In this document: positions 54,401 through 62,383 of the stretch, in pieces
Numbering within the stretch: position 1 is the first letter of the stretch
Layout of the letters: the number at the start of each line of letters is the position of its first letter
Assembly: GCA_024583055.1 (NCBI GenBank)
Contig: CP102145.1
Location: 1,054,001 to 1,118,000 of the forward strand
Length of the DNA: 64,000 bases
Direction: 5' to 3'
DNA from: Streptococcus suis
GTDB lineage: Bacteria; Bacillota; Bacilli; Lactobacillales; Streptococcaceae
Notes under the pieces: model-generated
Told to the model about the DNA's origin: nothing
Seen by the model: the letters and a program-made list of their open reading frames with translations, nothing else
Databases searched by the model: none
Made by a program: the position numbers and the translations under genes

Positions 54401-54712
54401 ATGCAAACCCCTGAACAATATCTTTTCACTTATATAGACACAAAAGGTAATGTAAATAAACCTGTACATATTGATTATCTTAACTATAAAATGAGGTCTG
54501 TGGAGAATCGACATAAGTTGAGACATGCTACACCGCATATGTTACGCCACACTGGAGCAACACTAGCTAAACAAGCAGGTACTTCCATTGAAGTAATTTC
54601 TGAAGCTCTAACTCATAGCGATACATCAACTACAAAATCGTATATAAATACATCTAACGTAGGCCCAATTGCAATGGGAGAAATCGCCTATCGAAACCTT
54701 AAAAAAATTTAG
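54401..54712 (+). pseudogene. C-terminal fragment of a tyrosine recombinase (integrase)
   Basis: 103 codons with HMLRHTGATLAKQAGTSIEVI (HxxR) followed by LTHSDTSTTKSYIN, the His and nucleophile Tyr of phage/ICE-type integrases. The N-terminal arm-binding and core domains are missing. It ends 97 bp before a copy of the rpsI 3' end, the place expected for an element integrated there. Confidence 0.85.
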
Positions 54713-55281: not shown

Positions 55282-55323
55282 AAAAAAGTGGTTATCGACC
55301 TGATTGTTGATAACCGCTTTTTC
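55281..55323 (+). terminator. Terminator of the small gene
   Basis: AAAAAGTGGTTATC / GATAACCGCTTTTT (core GGTTATC 55290-55296 with GATAACC 55309-55315). The decamer array begins in its T run. Confidence 0.85.
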
Positions 55324-55640
55324 TGTATTCTACTGTATTCTACTGTATTCTACTGTATTCTACTGTATTCTACTGTATTCTACTGTATTCTACTGTATTC
55401 TACTGTATTCTACTGTATTCTACTGTATTCTACTGTATTCTACTGTATTCTACTGTATTCTACTGTATTCTACTGTATTCTACTGTATTCTACTGTATTC
55501 TACTGTATTCTACTGTATTCTACTGTATTCTACTGTATTCTACTGTATTCTACTGTATTCTACTGTATTCTACTGTATTCTACTGTATTCTACTGTATTC
55601 TACTGTATTCTACTGTATTCTACTGTATTCTACTGTATTC
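55323..55640. repeat. Perfect decamer tandem array, about 32 copies of TACTGTATTC
   Basis: 318 bp of an uninterrupted 10-bp unit. All three plus-strand frames are open only because the unit lacks stops, so apparent proteins of the YCILLYSTVF repeat are not genes. It lies between a terminator and the end of the truncated AlbA-type gene. Copy number is probably variable. Confidence 0.97.
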
Positions 55641-55667
55641 TTATTACTAATAGTATCCTGACTGCAA

Positions 55668-56455: not shown

Positions 56456-56905
56456 CTAGTCATCAAAACCAATAAAAGTAATCAAATCATTCTCCTGAAT
56501 TATTTCAGCAAAATTCATAACTGGTAATGTATATACTGGGAATTGATTCCCTAAATTGGTCAACGCAGAAATATAGGTGCGCACATAAGGGTAGAGAATA
56601 GCTACAGCATTCTTCCCTAAAACATCTTTTAAATCATTATTTGTTTCAAAATCTTCTGACTGATAACCATAGATTCCTCTAACAGAAACTTTACAAGTAA
56701 AAGGAATGTGTTTTTCTGATTCTTCTTCCAATTCACCTAAGGCAACATTGATGATGACATAGGCTTTTTCTTGAGATTTATTTATACCGATTTCTGCAGA
56801 AAACGATACAGGCATACTCAGTTTTTCCTCTGTATTTTCAAATAAATCATTAACCCTGTAATAAGATTCATCAATTACATAATTTTCAAATGATATAACT
56901 GCCAC
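56456..56905 (-). CDS. SecB-like chaperone of a toxin-antitoxin-chaperone (TAC) operon
   Basis: 149 residues. The C-terminal half AVAILYPYVRTYISALTNLG with QFPVYTLPVMNFAEI matches the SecB signature (YPYxRxxISxLT and PVNF), after a beta-rich N-terminal half. Streptococci generally lack housekeeping SecB, so a single SecB-like gene here points to a TAC chaperone, which protects its antitoxin from degradation. The start overlaps the antitoxin stop by one base. Third gene of the operon. Confidence 0.82.
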   Translation of the reverse strand: MAVISFENYVIDESYYRVNDLFENTEEKLSMPVSFSAEIGINKSQEKAYVIINVALGELEEESEKHIPFTCKVSVRGIYGYQSEDFETNNDLKDVLGKNAVAILYPYVRTYISALTNLGNQFPVYTLPVMNFAEIIQENDLITFIGFDD

Positions 56906-57168
56906 TATGCTACCTGCCCTCCAGTTAGTTGATAATCAATAAAACTAGGCATTGTGTTTGAGTATTCTTTTGTTTTTACAGTTGGTTCTGAAAAATTTTT
57001 CTTATCAAAAGTTTCTAGTTTGTATTGGCTATTTTTAAATGATTGCATTTCAATCGGGGTCTTTGCATGAGTTTTAATGATCTCAACAATCTCATCAATT
57101 GCTTCTTGAGGAAACCAGGAATCAACATCAAGAATTGAATCGTCTAAAATAATATTTTTATATGTCAT
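56905..57168 (-). CDS. Putative antitoxin of the TAC operon
   Basis: 87 residues, acidic N-terminal half (DDSILDVDSWFPQEAIDEIVEIIK) and a Ser/Thr/Lys-rich C-terminal half ending FIDYQLTGGQVA. No known domain recognised. It lies between the toxin-like and chaperone-like genes with one-base overlaps on both sides. In TAC systems the antitoxin has a C-terminal chaperone-addiction stretch; the low-complexity tail here could be that. Assigned by position only. Confidence 0.65.
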   Translation of the reverse strand: MTYKNIILDDSILDVDSWFPQEAIDEIVEIIKTHAKTPIEMQSFKNSQYKLETFDKKNFSEPTVKTKEYSNTMPSFIDYQLTGGQVA

Positions 57169-57755
57169 TATTCTACCTCCTTAGTAGCTTCCCAATTTAT
57201 TGCGTCAGTATTTCTCAAACAAAGTTCTCGACCATTTGGAAAATTAGATAATGTACTTCTTGAACTATAAAAAGGTGTATAGGTGTCTTTCACAACCCCA
57301 TCAACCTGAATTTTTAGCCCATGCTGAATAAGATACTCTATAAATATACCATCCAAATTAGCCCGTCTCAACGAATTAGTCTCTTTGAAAGTCGTCAAAC
57401 TCTGTTCTATTTTCCGATATAGCTTATCACGAAGCTTTACAAATCGTTTAAAGTTCTCCGGCTCGTTAAAATCTAGAATATAGAGAGTAGTCTCATCAAA
57501 GCAAAATTGAATAAGTGCTGTTTTATTCCTATCACTTTTCCATTTCTGTGCATATTGCTTTGCGCATTTTTTCCCGTCAAATTCTAGTAATTCATTGTCC
57601 AAAAAAAGATATAATCCTTGACCTAAATCATTCGGTAAACGCTGCCCAGGAGGTATAACTACATCAGATTTTATAGAAAACGGTTTAATTTTTACTTCTT
57701 TTGTTTGAATAATAGCTTGAGCATTTTGAGGAGTGGTGCCATGATAACCTTCCAA
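57168..57755 (-). CDS. ADP-ribosyltransferase-like toxin of the TAC operon
   Basis: 195 residues from a TTG at 57755 (AAGGAG 6 bases upstream). The N-terminus GYHGTTPQNAQAII has the YHGT motif of ART/PARP-like folds with His5; LGQGLYLFL supplies Tyr49, and NGRELCLRN supplies Glu177, giving a plausible H-Y-E triad. Such toxins transfer ADP-ribose from NAD to protein or RNA. First gene of the operon, directly behind a consensus promoter and a palindrome. Activity is inferred. Confidence 0.7.
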   Translation of the reverse strand: MEGYHGTTPQNAQAIIQTKEVKIKPFSIKSDVVIPPGQRLPNDLGQGLYLFLDNELLEFDGKKCAKQYAQKWKSDRNKTALIQFCFDETTLYILDFNEPENFKRFVKLRDKLYRKIEQSLTTFKETNSLRRANLDGIFIEYLIQHGLKIQVDGVVKDTYTPFYSSRSTLSNFPNGRELCLRNTDAINWEATKEVE

Positions 57756-57775
57756 CAGTATCTCCTTACAGCCTC

Positions 57776-57838
57776 AATTTACTGTAGTAAGCTCTGCTTA
57801 CTACAGTAAATTATAATATTTTTATTGTATCTTGTCAA
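57776..57838 (-). promoter_or_regulatory. Consensus promoter with 17-bp-arm palindrome before the TAC operon
   Basis: Minus-strand TTGACA (57838-57833), 17 bp, TATAAT (57815-57810). The perfect inverted repeat AATTTACTGTAGTAAGC, loop of three, and its complement (57776-57812) overlaps the -10 and the start region. It is a likely operator for autoregulation by the antitoxin. Confidence 0.88.
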
Positions 57839-57879: not shown

Positions 57880-58017
57880 TCATTCCACCATCTCCCTCAC
57901 TTTACTCTCAATAAATTCAATATCATCATCCGAAAGTCCATATTTTCGATAGAGTTGTGCGTCTAACTCAGCTATTGATTGTGACCAATCAATGTCCGAG
58001 TTAGACGCATCATCTAT
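57880..58017 (-). pseudogene. Alternative or duplicated C-terminal fragment of the restriction-methylase protein
   Basis: 45 codons encoding DIDWSQSIAELDAQLYRKYG then DDDIEFIESKVREMVE, parallel to IIDWSKSVEEIERQLYDYF..NVRRMD, the last residues of the 1454-residue protein that stops at 58019. It is a diverged second copy of that C-terminus with no start. A recombination scar, or a store of alternative ends. Confidence 0.75.
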
Positions 58018-58018
58018 T

Positions 58019-61000
58019 CTAATCCATCCTTCTAACATTCACTTTCAGTTCAGCAATAATGTTATCTGGCACATTAAAGTAATCGTAAAGCTGTCTTTCA
58101 ATTTCTTCAACAGATTTCGACCAGTCGATAATAGAATAATCACTAAAATCAAACCACGGAACATTGCTCCAAACTTCTTTAGATTGATTATGTTGAGTCA
58201 CTTTAAGTGTACCTAACATTGCGCGAGCTACGTCTGTTTTGATATACTTCAAACAATTCTCAGCTTCCCTCTCGGTATCAAAAGCACCAAAAGAAATAAA
58301 GGTTTGTGTGTGACCCACGAGTGGGGTACCCACGAGTGGGGTCGATAGAACTTCGCCTATCGCCCCACTTCCGTTTGAAGCAGGCAAAAATACTTTGTAT
58401 TTATTCAAATTAGGGTGTTCTTCAACTAAATCAGATTCTATCCACTTTGTCACACGTTCGTTATTGATACGTCCGTATATTCCAATTTGATTATCTGATT
58501 GTTTTTCATCTAAAAATACTTCAGGTAGTTTCTCAAAAATGTTGGAACTGATTGATTTTTCTTCTGCTACAGAAACCCTCCCCTTCAACTCTGGATAACT
58601 ACTATATAAATTATTGCTAAATTTATAACTACTCTTTCCAAATAGATATTCATTAAATGATCTTTTAACCTTATGACGAACTAGATGTAACAAGTCATTT
58701 AACCATTCTATTGGCGTAAAGGTTTCAATAGCTCCAAAGTTTTCCTTAACATCTCGATAAGTTACAGCTACGCCACCCTTTATGTCTGTATTTGGAAAGA
58801 CTTCATCTGACTTTTGAGAGAAGTAAATCACTTTAAGATGTTCATCAGCCAACATTTTTTGATTCCATGCTTTCGGAGTTTGACCTGCATTAAAGAGAAA
58901 ACGAGCCGGTGTGATTAAGACCGCCTTATCCGCAACTTCATAAGCCAAATCCATAAACTTATGATAGATTGGCTCATCACGAGCAACATCTCCGATCCCT
59001 TCATTTTGATACGGAGGATTTCCGATCACTACATCAAATTTCACCTTATTAAATGCCTCCTCAACTAGTTTTTTACCTTGTTCACTATCTGTTTTTAGGG
59101 TATCTGTCAGGCTTTCAATGTAAGTTACATTGGTTTTGTACTTCCGATAGCCTGTCAGTGTACGTTCAGTAATGGTTTTTGCCATTGGCGTTTTAGCAAT
59201 AGCGTAGATATTATTCGCTAAAATCTCTTGATAGACTTGGTCAGCTTCAAAATGGTTGTCATCATTTTCTGCCACTCGTTGATAATACAAGCTAATGGCG
59301 CTATGCAGAGGGTAGAGACCTGTCTTTGAGTTAATGTCTAAGATTTTTGTATCTCGTTGATAGATTGATGGAGTCACTTCATTAGACACCCAGTGAAGAT
59401 TTGACGTCGCACCATCTGTCACCGACTCAAAGTTATCATCATAGAAGTTCAAACCACCGACAGACTTAGATACTTGGAGATTGACCACGCGCCATGGTGT
59501 CAGTACCGTTTCCTTATCAGGGTTTTTAAAGGTCCCAAACAGCTCTGCAATCTGTTCCGCACGCTCGATGAAGTCCAGATCATCAAAGGATTTGGCACGC
59601 TGACGAATGATACGACCTGCTTCGATAAAGACCTCAGCATCATAATACTTGGTAATCTCACTAAACATTCCCTTGGTGAAACCTTTTGGCATGAACTCTT
59701 TCCACGATTCATCATCCACCTGCTTGATAAAGTCTTGAATGGTAATATCTTTTGATAAATCGACCGCCATGCCGTAAATCATCATTGGAATACGGATAGA
59801 AACCCCGCGTAAAATAGAAATCATATTTTTCCGCTGTTTCTTAGCTTCTTTTTGCTTTTCGATAACCTCTAGATCTTCTGCTGTTCGTTTAGCTTTTGGT
59901 TTCTTTTTAGCTTTTTCAGCTTGCTCATGCTCTTCAGTTGTCAACCCATTTTCATTGATTACAACTTTCTTAGGCGTTTTTTGACTCTGTGTCTTACCAA
60001 CGATAGCATTGAGTTTGGTAAACATGCTCGCATCATCAGCAGTTAAAGTTAAAAGATTGTCATTATATAGACTGTCGTCTTCAAAACCTGACCGCACTGC
60101 CTTTTCAGCATAAACTTTCTTGAGCTGTGTCAGCATTCTATCCACATCGTAGGTCTTCATTCCATTGTCTGAAGCGCCTAAGATTGGCATAAAGTTTAGA
60201 AGACGAGCCATAGCTTGTTTTTGTGCTTGCGTATTTTTCTTCCCTACACCTGAGTTAATCTGGGCACTCTCCGCCATGACAGTCAAGGCTCTATCAGGGG
60301 CAAAATCAAAAACATAACAATTCGTCTTCATTCCCAATTTCTCATGAGAAAAAGGCGTCTGAGCACGAAAGGCAGCTTGTAGGTAGTTCATGGCACTATT
60401 GGTATTAGACAAGAAGAGAACAGCTGTCCACTCTGGGATATTGACGCCTGTTGTCAGCTTACGAACAGTCAAGGTAATGGTTTTTGTCTGCGAAGGGTCT
60501 TCACCAATAGCAGAACGAACTTTCTCTATGTCCGCATCGTTAGCAATTCCATCATCACTACTTGCACCTCGAACAACGTTAACAATTTTATATTCTTTCC
60601 CGAAAACAGGGTGTTCTTTAAGCAAGTCCTCAAAAGCATTTGCTTCCTTAACACCTGGCATGAGCCAAAGCGTATGACGCAACTCTTCACGATAAGACTT
60701 CGTTGAAAAAGGGTAGTTCGTACGACTATCTGGATGTGTGATATTATCTAAGAATTGGCGAACCTCTTGCTTATAAACAAGTTTACCATCCTCAGCCACA
60801 CGGAAAAATTCCCTAAAGTTAAACGACTTACTCTCATCAGAAAAACGTTCCTTATGCTTCATTTCAAAAGTGTACATTGATACTTTTGGCAAAGTTTCAT
60901 AAGGATTTGGCTCACTTGGACGTTCTAATTCCCACTTCTTCTTAGCCTGTTGTTCCATGACATAGTCCCAAGTATAAACTTGCTCCTCGTCAAATTGATC

Positions 61001-62383
61001 CAGAAGATTGAAGGGGGTTCCTGATAATTCAAGTATCTTTGTATGCTCTTTGACCAATTCTTTCATAACGGTGTCACTGAGCTCGGTTTGCGTTCCCTCG
61101 TGCGCCTCATCAATGATAATCAAATCCCAATCCACATCTGCAAAATCTTTCAGATTGGTTTGTCCGCCATTGTACCGAAGCAATTGGATTGAAGCAAAAT
61201 ACACAAAAGGTTTTTCTCCTCGCTTCAGGTTTTCAAGCGTTTCTCCTTGATTGACTGAGCCATAATCATACCCATCAGCGCTCATCTTCATTTTCTTGAA
61301 ATCATCAAACCAAGAATCCGCCACAACAGGGCGATGAGTCATGATGAGAACTTTTTGAAAAGCCTCATTCTTGACTAATTGCAAGGACGTCAGAGTTTTG
61401 CCAAAACGCATTTTAGCATTCCAGAGCATTCGGTCTTTTTTCTTAAAGACTTTTTGCGTCTGCTCGACCGCTGCCTCTTGTTCTGGACGAAGGGTGATAA
61501 CTGGTTCTTCAATAAATGATTCTTTGGCAGTAATATTTAGATAATTTCTACCTTCTTTAACAGCTTTAATAGCAGCCTTAGCTGTCTCTAAATCCGTCTT
61601 GAACCACTCTGTTCCTTCCAGTTGTTCAGCCTGTTTAATCCCTGAACGCTTCAAGACATTATGCACATCATAATCATGAAACCAGGACTTGGTCGCCTTT
61701 TTGTAAGCAAGCTCTACCCAACCAAGCGTGTAAGGCAGACCAGCTGTTTTCATGTATTGATTAATACGTTTTGGGGCAACAGTACGTAAAAAGTCACTAT
61801 TTGGCGACCAATCTGTCTCAATATCATCCGAAGAAACGCTACCCTCACCAATTTTTTGAGTTCCTTCGAAGGCATTAAATAGTCCACTTTCATTGTTAAC
61901 TGTTTGAATATAGATAAACTTCCGCTCAGCCGTAGTGTACATTTCTTGTGCTCTCGGTTCTAAAAACTGACCAATTGCACTGGCTTTAATATCCGGTTCA
62001 ATATAGGTCAGCATGACCCAAGCTAGTATGTCAAAGACTTGTTTTAGTGATTTTAAGGCATTTTCTTTTGTCGCATCTTCTGGATTAAGGACATGGGCAG
62101 AATTATTCCCCTTTCCCTTGATATCATAAAAGTGATCGACGATTATTTTATTGGGAATAAAGTCTCTTATCTCTCTTAGTACGTCATTAAAGGTGGCGCG
62201 CTCACTAATATCTAAATATTCTCTATCGGCAACCAACCTCGCTGTATTCTCAGCAACTTTTCTCACCTTAGTCAGCGTGCCTTCATAGTCCCCATGTGTA
62301 TAGTTTTCTTCAGCCATGTTTATGGTTCTAAAAAGCTCGGCTGTATCTATATCAATTGCCAAAAATTCAAAATTTGAAATCAT
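58019..62383 (-). CDS. Large HEPN/GIY-YIG-like/SF2 helicase/Eco57I-type methyltransferase fusion protein
   Basis: 1454 residues. N-terminal helical HEPN/DUF4145-like region (about 1-135). Next a segment (about 150-275) with KIGEGSV, HDYDVHNVL and GTEWFK, resembling T5orf172/GIY-YIG nucleases. Then SF2 helicase motifs: NAKMRFGKT (323-330), DEAH (425-428), SGTPFN (454-459), later motifs to about 700. The C-terminal part is methyltransferase-like with NPPY at 1122-1125 and a degenerate motif I (DINSKTGL). It should restrict DNA using ATP-driven movement. It lies 3 bp after a short methyltransferase gene. Domain borders are by eye. Confidence 0.82.
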   Translation of the reverse strand: MISNFEFLAIDIDTAELFRTINMAEENYTHGDYEGTLTKVRKVAENTARLVADREYLDISERATFNDVLREIRDFIPNKIIVDHFYDIKGKGNNSAHVLNPEDATKENALKSLKQVFDILAWVMLTYIEPDIKASAIGQFLEPRAQEMYTTAERKFIYIQTVNNESGLFNAFEGTQKIGEGSVSSDDIETDWSPNSDFLRTVAPKRINQYMKTAGLPYTLGWVELAYKKATKSWFHDYDVHNVLKRSGIKQAEQLEGTEWFKTDLETAKAAIKAVKEGRNYLNITAKESFIEEPVITLRPEQEAAVEQTQKVFKKKDRMLWNAKMRFGKTLTSLQLVKNEAFQKVLIMTHRPVVADSWFDDFKKMKMSADGYDYGSVNQGETLENLKRGEKPFVYFASIQLLRYNGGQTNLKDFADVDWDLIIIDEAHEGTQTELSDTVMKELVKEHTKILELSGTPFNLLDQFDEEQVYTWDYVMEQQAKKKWELERPSEPNPYETLPKVSMYTFEMKHKERFSDESKSFNFREFFRVAEDGKLVYKQEVRQFLDNITHPDSRTNYPFSTKSYREELRHTLWLMPGVKEANAFEDLLKEHPVFGKEYKIVNVVRGASSDDGIANDADIEKVRSAIGEDPSQTKTITLTVRKLTTGVNIPEWTAVLFLSNTNSAMNYLQAAFRAQTPFSHEKLGMKTNCYVFDFAPDRALTVMAESAQINSGVGKKNTQAQKQAMARLLNFMPILGASDNGMKTYDVDRMLTQLKKVYAEKAVRSGFEDDSLYNDNLLTLTADDASMFTKLNAIVGKTQSQKTPKKVVINENGLTTEEHEQAEKAKKKPKAKRTAEDLEVIEKQKEAKKQRKNMISILRGVSIRIPMMIYGMAVDLSKDITIQDFIKQVDDESWKEFMPKGFTKGMFSEITKYYDAEVFIEAGRIIRQRAKSFDDLDFIERAEQIAELFGTFKNPDKETVLTPWRVVNLQVSKSVGGLNFYDDNFESVTDGATSNLHWVSNEVTPSIYQRDTKILDINSKTGLYPLHSAISLYYQRVAENDDNHFEADQVYQEILANNIYAIAKTPMAKTITERTLTGYRKYKTNVTYIESLTDTLKTDSEQGKKLVEEAFNKVKFDVVIGNPPYQNEGIGDVARDEPIYHKFMDLAYEVADKAVLITPARFLFNAGQTPKAWNQKMLADEHLKVIYFSQKSDEVFPNTDIKGGVAVTYRDVKENFGAIETFTPIEWLNDLLHLVRHKVKRSFNEYLFGKSSYKFSNNLYSSYPELKGRVSVAEEKSISSNIFEKLPEVFLDEKQSDNQIGIYGRINNERVTKWIESDLVEEHPNLNKYKVFLPASNGSGAIGEVLSTPLVGTPLVGHTQTFISFGAFDTEREAENCLKYIKTDVARAMLGTLKVTQHNQSKEVWSNVPWFDFSDYSIIDWSKSVEEIERQLYDYFNVPDNIIAELKVNVRRMD
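58315..58345. repeat. 15-bp tandem duplication in the restriction-methylase gene
   Basis: CCCACGAGTGGGGTA is followed directly by CCCACGAGTGGGGTC. In the protein this gives TPLVGTPLVGH, an in-frame five-residue duplication. Confidence 0.9.

What the first reader, a model, noticed from the sequence alone, without database searches (positions are those of the whole stretch)
56456..57838. Toxin-antitoxin-chaperone operon with an ADP-ribosyltransferase-like toxin and SecB-like chaperone in a Gram-positive host
Three genes overlap by one base each in the order toxin (YHGT...GLYLF...NGRELCLR), antitoxin, SecB-like chaperone (YPYVRTYISALTN, PVMNF). A perfect TTGACA-17-TATAAT promoter and a 17-bp-arm palindrome precede them. 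The order and gene types resemble CmdTAC, an E. coli phage-defence TAC whose toxin ADP-ribosylates mRNA. Streptococci generally lack housekeeping SecB, so the chaperone is most likely dedicated to the antitoxin. It sits in an island next to a restriction system. I do not know of a described streptococcal version, but I cannot search.
Basis: partly seen in the sequence, partly recalled or inferred. Interest (0 to 1): 0.92.

Follow-up and report, generated by a model that had tools for sequence, protein, structure and literature searches.

The report
Streptococcal ADP-ribosyltransferase toxin-antitoxin-chaperone operon
A streptococcal three-gene operon looks like a relative of the E. coli phage-defence system CmdTAC (toxin, antitoxin and guardian chaperone), but its toxin belongs to a separate branch with a different catalytic residue, and its function is untested.

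Summary
On the minus strand, three genes overlapping by one base encode T (195 aa), A (87 aa) and C (149 aa), behind a 12/12 sigma-70-type promoter and a 17-bp-arm palindrome unique in the genome. C passes Pfam's SecB cut-off and matches PADLOC's CmdC profile (2.5e-16). T matches no curated family, but its AlphaFold model (pLDDT 87.9) has PARP, exotoxin A and related folds as nearest, if weak, PDB neighbours, and profile comparison ties it to CmdT-like toxins (99.4%). It is a distant CmdTAC relative. T's branch (support 100/99) has Glu at the third catalytic position in 23 of 23 sequences; the CmdT-like set has Gln in 34 of 38, Glu in none. The same order follows T in all 18 T-bearing genomes of 284 streptococci, and in phage and viral contigs. 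Antitoxins vary greatly but end in Ala in 19 of 19 distinct cases with a chaperone; at two chaperone-less loci they lack tail and Ala. This fits a chaperone-addicted, ClpXP-degron mechanism like CmdTAC's. Toxicity, phage defence, trigger and target are inferred. CmdTAC in Gram-positives is already in print, so this is a new variant, not a new kind.

The parts
57810..57838 (-). Promoter-like TTGACA-17-TATAAT upstream of T
   Evidence: 12 of 12 consensus matches; a like element at a like place in L002
57776..57812 (.). Perfect 17-bp-arm inverted repeat with 3-nt loop between the -10 element and the T ribosome-binding site; possible operator or 5'-UTR hairpin
   Evidence: arm found only here in the genome at up to 1 mismatch; not found in L002
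57168..57755 (-). T: 195-aa ADP-ribosyltransferase-fold toxin; H5, Y49, E177 (plus branch-specific E140)
   Evidence: AlphaFold pLDDT 87.9, pTM 0.84; Foldseek PDB neighbours mostly ART/PARP, best E 4.3e-3; hhalign 99.4% to eight CmdT-like toxins; HMM 51.4 bits; PHROG 14664, unknown function, 4.2e-30
56905..57168 (-). A: 87-aa antitoxin, hypervariable, with presumed chaperone-addiction tail, ending ...GGQVA
   Evidence: position and overlap; C-terminal Ala in 19 of 19 distinct antitoxins of the branch with a chaperone; only weak, probably chance, family hits (best 0.0028)
56456..56905 (-). C: 149-aa SecB-like chaperone of CmdC type
   Evidence: Pfam SecB 30.6 bits against cut-off 26; PADLOC PD-T4-9_C 2.5e-16, matched by 14 of 14 members scanned, the window's included; below the cut-offs of all NCBIfam housekeeping-SecB models it touches
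58019..62383 (-). Neighbour: ResIII helicase plus Eco57I-type methylase, 1454 aa (restriction system); context, not part of the operon
54401..54712 (+). Neighbour: phage-integrase C-terminal fragment on the other side; context
   Evidence: Pfam 3.2e-9

Best explanation
A mobile, chaperone-addicted toxin-antitoxin module that works like CmdTAC. T is an ADP-ribosyltransferase. A binds T through its N-terminal part and carries a disordered C-terminal tail with an ssrA-like end that ClpXP would recognise. C, a SecB-like chaperone, holds that tail and protects A. An incoming phage protein (in CmdTAC, newly made capsid) takes C away, A is degraded, T is released and ADP-ribosylates something essential (in CmdTAC, mRNA), stopping translation and aborting infection. 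Shown here: anatomy, SecB family, ART fold by prediction, homology to CmdT-like toxins, conserved operon, tail-chaperone correlation, phage-linked contexts of some relatives. Inferred: toxicity, neutralisation, which part of A binds what, protease, phage trigger, target.
For: C: Pfam SecB above cut-off, CmdC profile 2.5e-16. T: ART-like fold and homology to CmdT-like toxins (99.4%, 164 columns, 21% identity; 51.4 bits against 10.1 for the best of 460 shuffled sequences; the reverse profile finds 38 of 38). T-A-C at all 18 T-bearing genomes of 284; SecB domain detected in 17 of these 18, and the 18th (L016) has a C by ORF reading. Antitoxin C-terminal Ala 19/19 distinct against 4% Ala overall, 0 of 30 T and 0 of 19 distinct C in the branch. 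Chaperone-less loci L029 and L155 carry tail-less antitoxins without it. The genome's own tmRNA tag ends ALAA and ClpP-family genes are present. Contexts: after lysin genes in L019, L024, L037, L044; beside a small-terminase gene in L040; beside an integrase gene in L025. Published CmdTAC mechanism (PMC11618068, passages).
Against: T is not matched by PADLOC's CmdT models. The third catalytic residue differs from the CmdT-like set. The window's A ends VA, not LAA. ECOR22 CmdTAC itself was not obtained, so the link runs through other CmdT-like toxins, only some of which were checked against PADLOC. PDB fold matches are weak (no E below 0.001). L018 has Tyr for His, and L016 lacks the N-terminus. 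In the CmdT-like set 5 of 31 antitoxins do not end in Ala. No model of C or of the complex was obtained. No experiment.
Confidence: 0.8

Rival explanations
1. It is a true CmdTAC in function: T modifies adenine in single-stranded mRNA exactly as CmdT does, and C senses phage capsid.
For: Homologous T and C, same order; C matches the CmdC profile.
Against: T lies in a separate well-supported branch with Glu instead of Gln at the third catalytic site and an extra invariant Glu (E140), neither seen in any of the 38 CmdT-like sequences; no PADLOC CmdT match.
Confidence: 0.3
2. A chaperone-stabilised addiction module that maintains a mobile island or prophage, with phage defence secondary or absent.
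For: Several relatives sit in phage or viral contigs; the window copy lies near an integrase fragment. TA modules generally stabilise mobile DNA (recalled).
Against: Relatives also sit among what look like ordinary chromosomal genes (L021, L022, read by eye); here it adjoins a restriction system; CmdTAC and MqsRAC defend E. coli (PMC9519451 passages).
Confidence: 0.2
3. Degenerate or silent locus: the toxin fold is kept but the operon is inactive.
For: TTG and GTG starts; the palindrome overlaps the presumed transcription start region and could block expression.
Against: All three frames open, Shine-Dalgarno-like stretches and perfect promoter present; catalytic residues conserved among relatives at 26-74% identity, with L016 and L018 as exceptions.
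Confidence: 0.05

Closest known systems
CmdTAC (PD-T4-9), E. coli ECOR22
   Same: Toxin-antitoxin-SecB-like chaperone order; ART toxin with His and Tyr of the triad; small variable antitoxin with an Ala-ended tail; chaperone matches the CmdC profile
   Different: Toxin in a separate branch with Glu at the third site and not matched by PADLOC CmdT models; about 21% identity to a profile of CmdT-like toxins; defence, trigger and target untested; ECOR22 sequence itself not compared
Other TACs (M. tuberculosis HigBA-Rv1957, MqsRAC)
   Same: SecB-like chaperone gene with a TA pair
   Different: Their toxins are not ART-fold (recalled); antitoxins of TACs are typically homologous to canonical ones (PMC9519451 passage); profile A7 reaches Rv1957 only weakly, E 0.16
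PARP / exotoxin A type ADP-ribosyltransferases
   Same: Fold neighbours; H-Y-E residues
   Different: Pfam PARP matches only sub-threshold, in 7 of 21 relatives and not in the window protein; no sequence hit in PDB
PHROG 14664 (unknown function)
   Same: Window T matches over nearly full length, 4.2e-30
   Different: The family has no assigned function; this reading would give it one

Membership tests
CmdTAC (PD-T4-9) | Toxin matches the CmdT model | tested here: not met
   No PD-T4-9_A hit for the window T or for any of the 21 members of A2 (window included) at E<=10. Distant homology to CmdT-like toxins is strong. The DefenseFinder model was not available.
CmdTAC (PD-T4-9) | SecB-like chaperone as third gene, matching the CmdC model | tested here: met
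   PD-T4-9_C 2.5e-16; 14 of 14 members scanned
CmdTAC (PD-T4-9) | Order toxin, variable small ORF, chaperone | tested here: met
CmdTAC (PD-T4-9) | H-Y-[E,D,Q] triad in an ART fold | tested here: met
   H5, Y49, E177; model (modest E-values). Third residue differs from the Gln of most CmdT-like sequences fetched here.
CmdTAC (PD-T4-9) | Antitoxin with ClpXP-type C-terminus | tested here: inconclusive
   Ends QVA; all 19 distinct antitoxins of the branch with a chaperone end in Ala; the published CmdA ends LAA. Degradation not tested.
CmdTAC (PD-T4-9) | mRNA ADP-ribosylation, capsid-triggered abortive infection | not testable with these tools
   needs bench work
SecB (PF02556) | Score above Pfam's gathering cut-off | tested here: met
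   30.6 bits against 26
SecB (PF02556) | SecB tetramer fold | not tested
   Prediction never started: machine busy
Housekeeping SecB (NCBIfam equivalogs) | Score above the curated cut-off | tested here: not met
   Best 31 bits against cut-off 180; TIGR00809 27.5 against 102.8
PARP catalytic domain (PF00644) | Score above Pfam's cut-off | tested here: not met
   Not among the window T's matches; best E 0.005 among 7 of 21 members

The most novel reading that the evidence does not exclude
The toxins of this branch are a distinct class of bacterial defence ART with the full PARP-type H-Y-E triad, using a different chemistry or target from CmdT (another nucleic acid, a protein, or chain elongation), carried by lactic-acid-bacterial prophages, satellites and islands as phage-against-phage weapons whose chaperone senses structural proteins of Gram-positive phages.
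Probability: 0.25. Interest if true: 0.75.

Novelty: new variant of a known kind. Interest (0 to 1): 0.55.

Why it matters
It adds a branch of ART-type TACs that the PADLOC toxin models miss, and suggests that the rare SecB-like proteins of streptococci are nearly always dedicated to an ART-like toxin: in the 284 genomes searched, 22 of 23 SecB-domain places have an ART-like gene and a small ORF upstream. The absence of the Ala-ended tail together with the chaperone at two separate loci is a natural test of the chaperone-addiction idea. The Glu/Gln split gives a direct question about what the third catalytic residue does.

Tried and rejected
Plain family searches of T: only chance-level hits in Pfam and NCBIfam, none in PADLOC; PHROG 14664 is a real match without function. 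Sequence searches of T against PDB: single sequence nothing, profiles only unrelated hits at E 0.08 or worse. Plasmids: no T match. Attempts to reach the E. coli CmdTAC through the DNA of three CmdT-like relatives in the E. coli collection (20,395 records): no match. Family-wide search with the A2 profile: 9 of 97 genomes, of which three outside the genus had only weak hits (2e-4 to 4e-4) to frames of about 570 aa, not followed.

Palindrome as a conserved operator: rejected as a family feature, not found in L002; kept as an unexplained local feature. Aromatic spacing in antitoxin tails: suggestive, but tail and N-part have about the same aromatic content (0.108 against 0.114), so not claimed. 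Idea that the S. pneumoniae-rich SecB group of PMC4257090 (158 of 196, passage), placed there within the solitary-SecB core, are chaperones of these operons: not established; the pneumococcal-type C scores below Pfam's cut-off, so it may be another group.

Limits of the counts. Glu/Gln: one of the two patterns that fetched relatives contains the Glu; rows from full-length search are free of that, and all of them show Glu. The CmdT-like set ('M', 38 rows) is a working set: 13 toxins of it were scanned against PADLOC; 9 match PD-T4-9_A below 1e-3 and 4 (L082, L135, L139, L141) only at 0.002-0.012; the others were fetched as relatives and not scanned. Of the eight in A6, four were scanned and all four match. 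Rows dropped: toxins under 140 aa after trimming and identical copies; L045 (frameshifted toxin) was not given; L142 gave no toxin by the script. Antitoxin counts use loci where the script parsed both A and C; the choice of A was automatic and in L111 is doubtful (a 45-base gap before C); L075, L080 and L131 had no A parsed; loci without a parsed C (mostly cut by a contig end) are not counted; the five exceptions are L072, L082, L108, L115 (near-copies of each other) and L119. L132 has a toxin-like gene with no recognisable partners. L016 (truncated) reached only 14.9 bits.

Full report
Host. The window is a stretch of a 2.19-Mb genome in 3 contigs. The species was not determined.

Anatomy. 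Three minus-strand genes overlap by one base at each junction: T 57755-57168, A 57168-56905, C 56905-56456, each with a Shine-Dalgarno-like stretch. The promoter at 57838-57810 is perfect. The 37-nt palindrome at 57776-57812 has arms found nowhere else in the genome and is not seen in the nearest relative. On one side is a restriction system (1454-aa ResIII/Eco57I protein, and a 231-aa frame with a sub-threshold MmeI-methylase match). On the other are a gene with a HATPase_c_4 domain, a perfect 32-copy 10-bp repeat and an integrase fragment.

Chaperone. C passes Pfam's SecB cut-off (30.6 bits against 26) and is the only SecB-domain match in this genome at E<=0.001. It falls far below NCBIfam's cut-offs for housekeeping SecB. 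PADLOC's best match is PD-T4-9_C, i.e. CmdC (2.5e-16), and 14 of 14 chaperones scanned, the window's included, match that profile. A profile of 19 chaperones, six of them from the CmdT-like set, finds solved SecB at 3.2e-11. No fold prediction of C could be run.

Toxin. No curated family matches. PHROG 14664 matches, without function. The AlphaFold model is confident (pLDDT 87.9, pTM 0.84). Its best PDB neighbours are a Vibrio toxin of a TA pair (8gug), PARP2, PARP1 and, at rank 12, exotoxin A domain III; viral neighbours include proteins named ART-PolyVal. The PDB E-values are modest (best 4.3e-3, none below 0.001, TM-score about 0.40), so the fold assignment rests on the run of ART neighbours plus the motif. 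H5, Y49 and E177 lie in strands 2-7, 48-52 and 175-180.

Relation to CmdT. Upstream of CmdC-like chaperones in other Bacillota lie toxins that match PADLOC's PD-T4-9_A (of six ART-like toxins given, five at 3.8e-9 to 1.4e-6, the sixth at 0.011). A profile of eight CmdT-like toxins (four scanned against PADLOC, all four matching) aligns with the window's family over 164 columns at 99.4% probability (a pairwise comparison, so its E-value is not that of a database search). An HMM of 38 CmdT-like toxins gives the window T 51.4 bits, against 10.1 for the best of 460 shuffled sequences, and the reverse search finds 38 of 38. In a maximum-likelihood tree of 61 toxins the window's branch (23 rows) is one side of a branch with support 100/99; the root is not known. 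At the third catalytic position the branch has Glu 23/23, the others Gln 34/38 (I, T, V, V in the rest). E140 is also invariant in the branch and absent in the others. His is kept in 21 of the 22 branch rows that have the position (L018 has Tyr; L016 lacks it), Tyr in 61 of 61.

Distribution. T occurs in 18 of 284 streptococcal genomes; ORF reading found A and C after T in all 18, though T is truncated in L016. Named relatives include S. sanguinis, S. infantis, S. mitis, S. parasanguinis, S. australis, S. pneumoniae-labelled genomes and Fructobacillus, and Lactobacillus phage LJ. SecB-domain matches in the genus number 23 places in 21 of 284 genomes: 17 belong to this branch, 5 more follow other ART-like toxins with Ala-ended antitoxins, and one (L069) has no ART-like gene upstream. 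In L019, L024, L037 and L044 the operon follows a lysin gene; in L040 a terminase small subunit gene; in L025 an integrase gene.

Antitoxin logic. Antitoxin sequence is hardly conserved (mean column identity 26%), yet all 19 distinct antitoxins of the branch that precede a chaperone end in Ala, and 26 of 31 in the CmdT-like set, against 4% Ala overall. Controls in the same call: T ending in Ala 0 of 30 (copies included) and distinct C 0 of 19 in the branch; 1 of 43 and 1 of 34 in the CmdT-like set. The counts include close relatives, so they are not independent events. The genome's tmRNA tag ends ALAA. In Fructobacillus broussonetiae (L029) no chaperone gene follows and the 67-aa antitoxin lacks the tail. 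In L155 a CmdT-like toxin is followed by two 69-aa antitoxins without tail or Ala end and without a chaperone; that genome's only SecB-domain match is elsewhere. This is what chaperone addiction predicts: the tail is kept where its keeper is present.

Mechanism. Read with the published CmdTAC mechanism (PMC11618068: passages), the likely working is: A folds and blocks T, C protects A's tail, a phage protein withdraws C, ClpXP removes A, T modifies its target and stops the cell. Only anatomy and homology are shown here. As CmdT alone is not toxic and CmdT+CmdA is, tests should use T with A.

Novelty. CmdTAC homologues in Gram-positive bacteria are in print. Searches for CmdTAC, for TAC with Streptococcus, for SecB-like chaperone with ADP-ribosyltransferase, for SecB with Firmicutes and chaperone addiction, and for CmdT with Streptococcus listed no paper that I recognised as describing this branch (listings only; passages were read in four papers). 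Most subscription papers are not held, among them the Mets 2024 TAC study, seen only as a citation. Verdict: new variant of a known kind.

Noticed in passing
L155 (reverse strand 1450-2495): CmdT-like toxin followed by two tandem tail-less 69-aa antitoxins and no SecB gene: an ART toxin-antitoxin without chaperone in a streptococcus.
   Followed up: partly
window 55323-55641: Perfect tandem array, 32 copies of the 10-bp unit CTGTATTCTA, beyond the operon's HATPase_c_4 neighbour gene; origin unexplained.
   Followed up: no
window 57880-58038 (-): 52-aa open frame that by eye resembles the C-terminus of the adjacent 1454-aa restriction protein, perhaps the remnant of a second, related restriction gene.
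   Followed up: no
L054 and L068: A further ART-like toxin lineage in streptococci (NGFEYCIR motif, antitoxin ending GLAA, SecB-like gene); scores somewhat higher with this branch's HMM than with the CmdT-like one.
   Followed up: partly
control genome Methanocaldococcus jannaschii: Matches to both the CmdT and CmdC profiles in an archaeon; not looked at further.
   Followed up: no
L109 and L110: Records of streptococcal satellite phages Javan245 and Javan248 carry a CmdT-like toxin, a small ORF and a SecB-like gene towards one end.
   Followed up: partly
L132 2477-3076: Toxin-like gene in a GC-rich viral contig with no recognisable antitoxin or chaperone.
   Followed up: no
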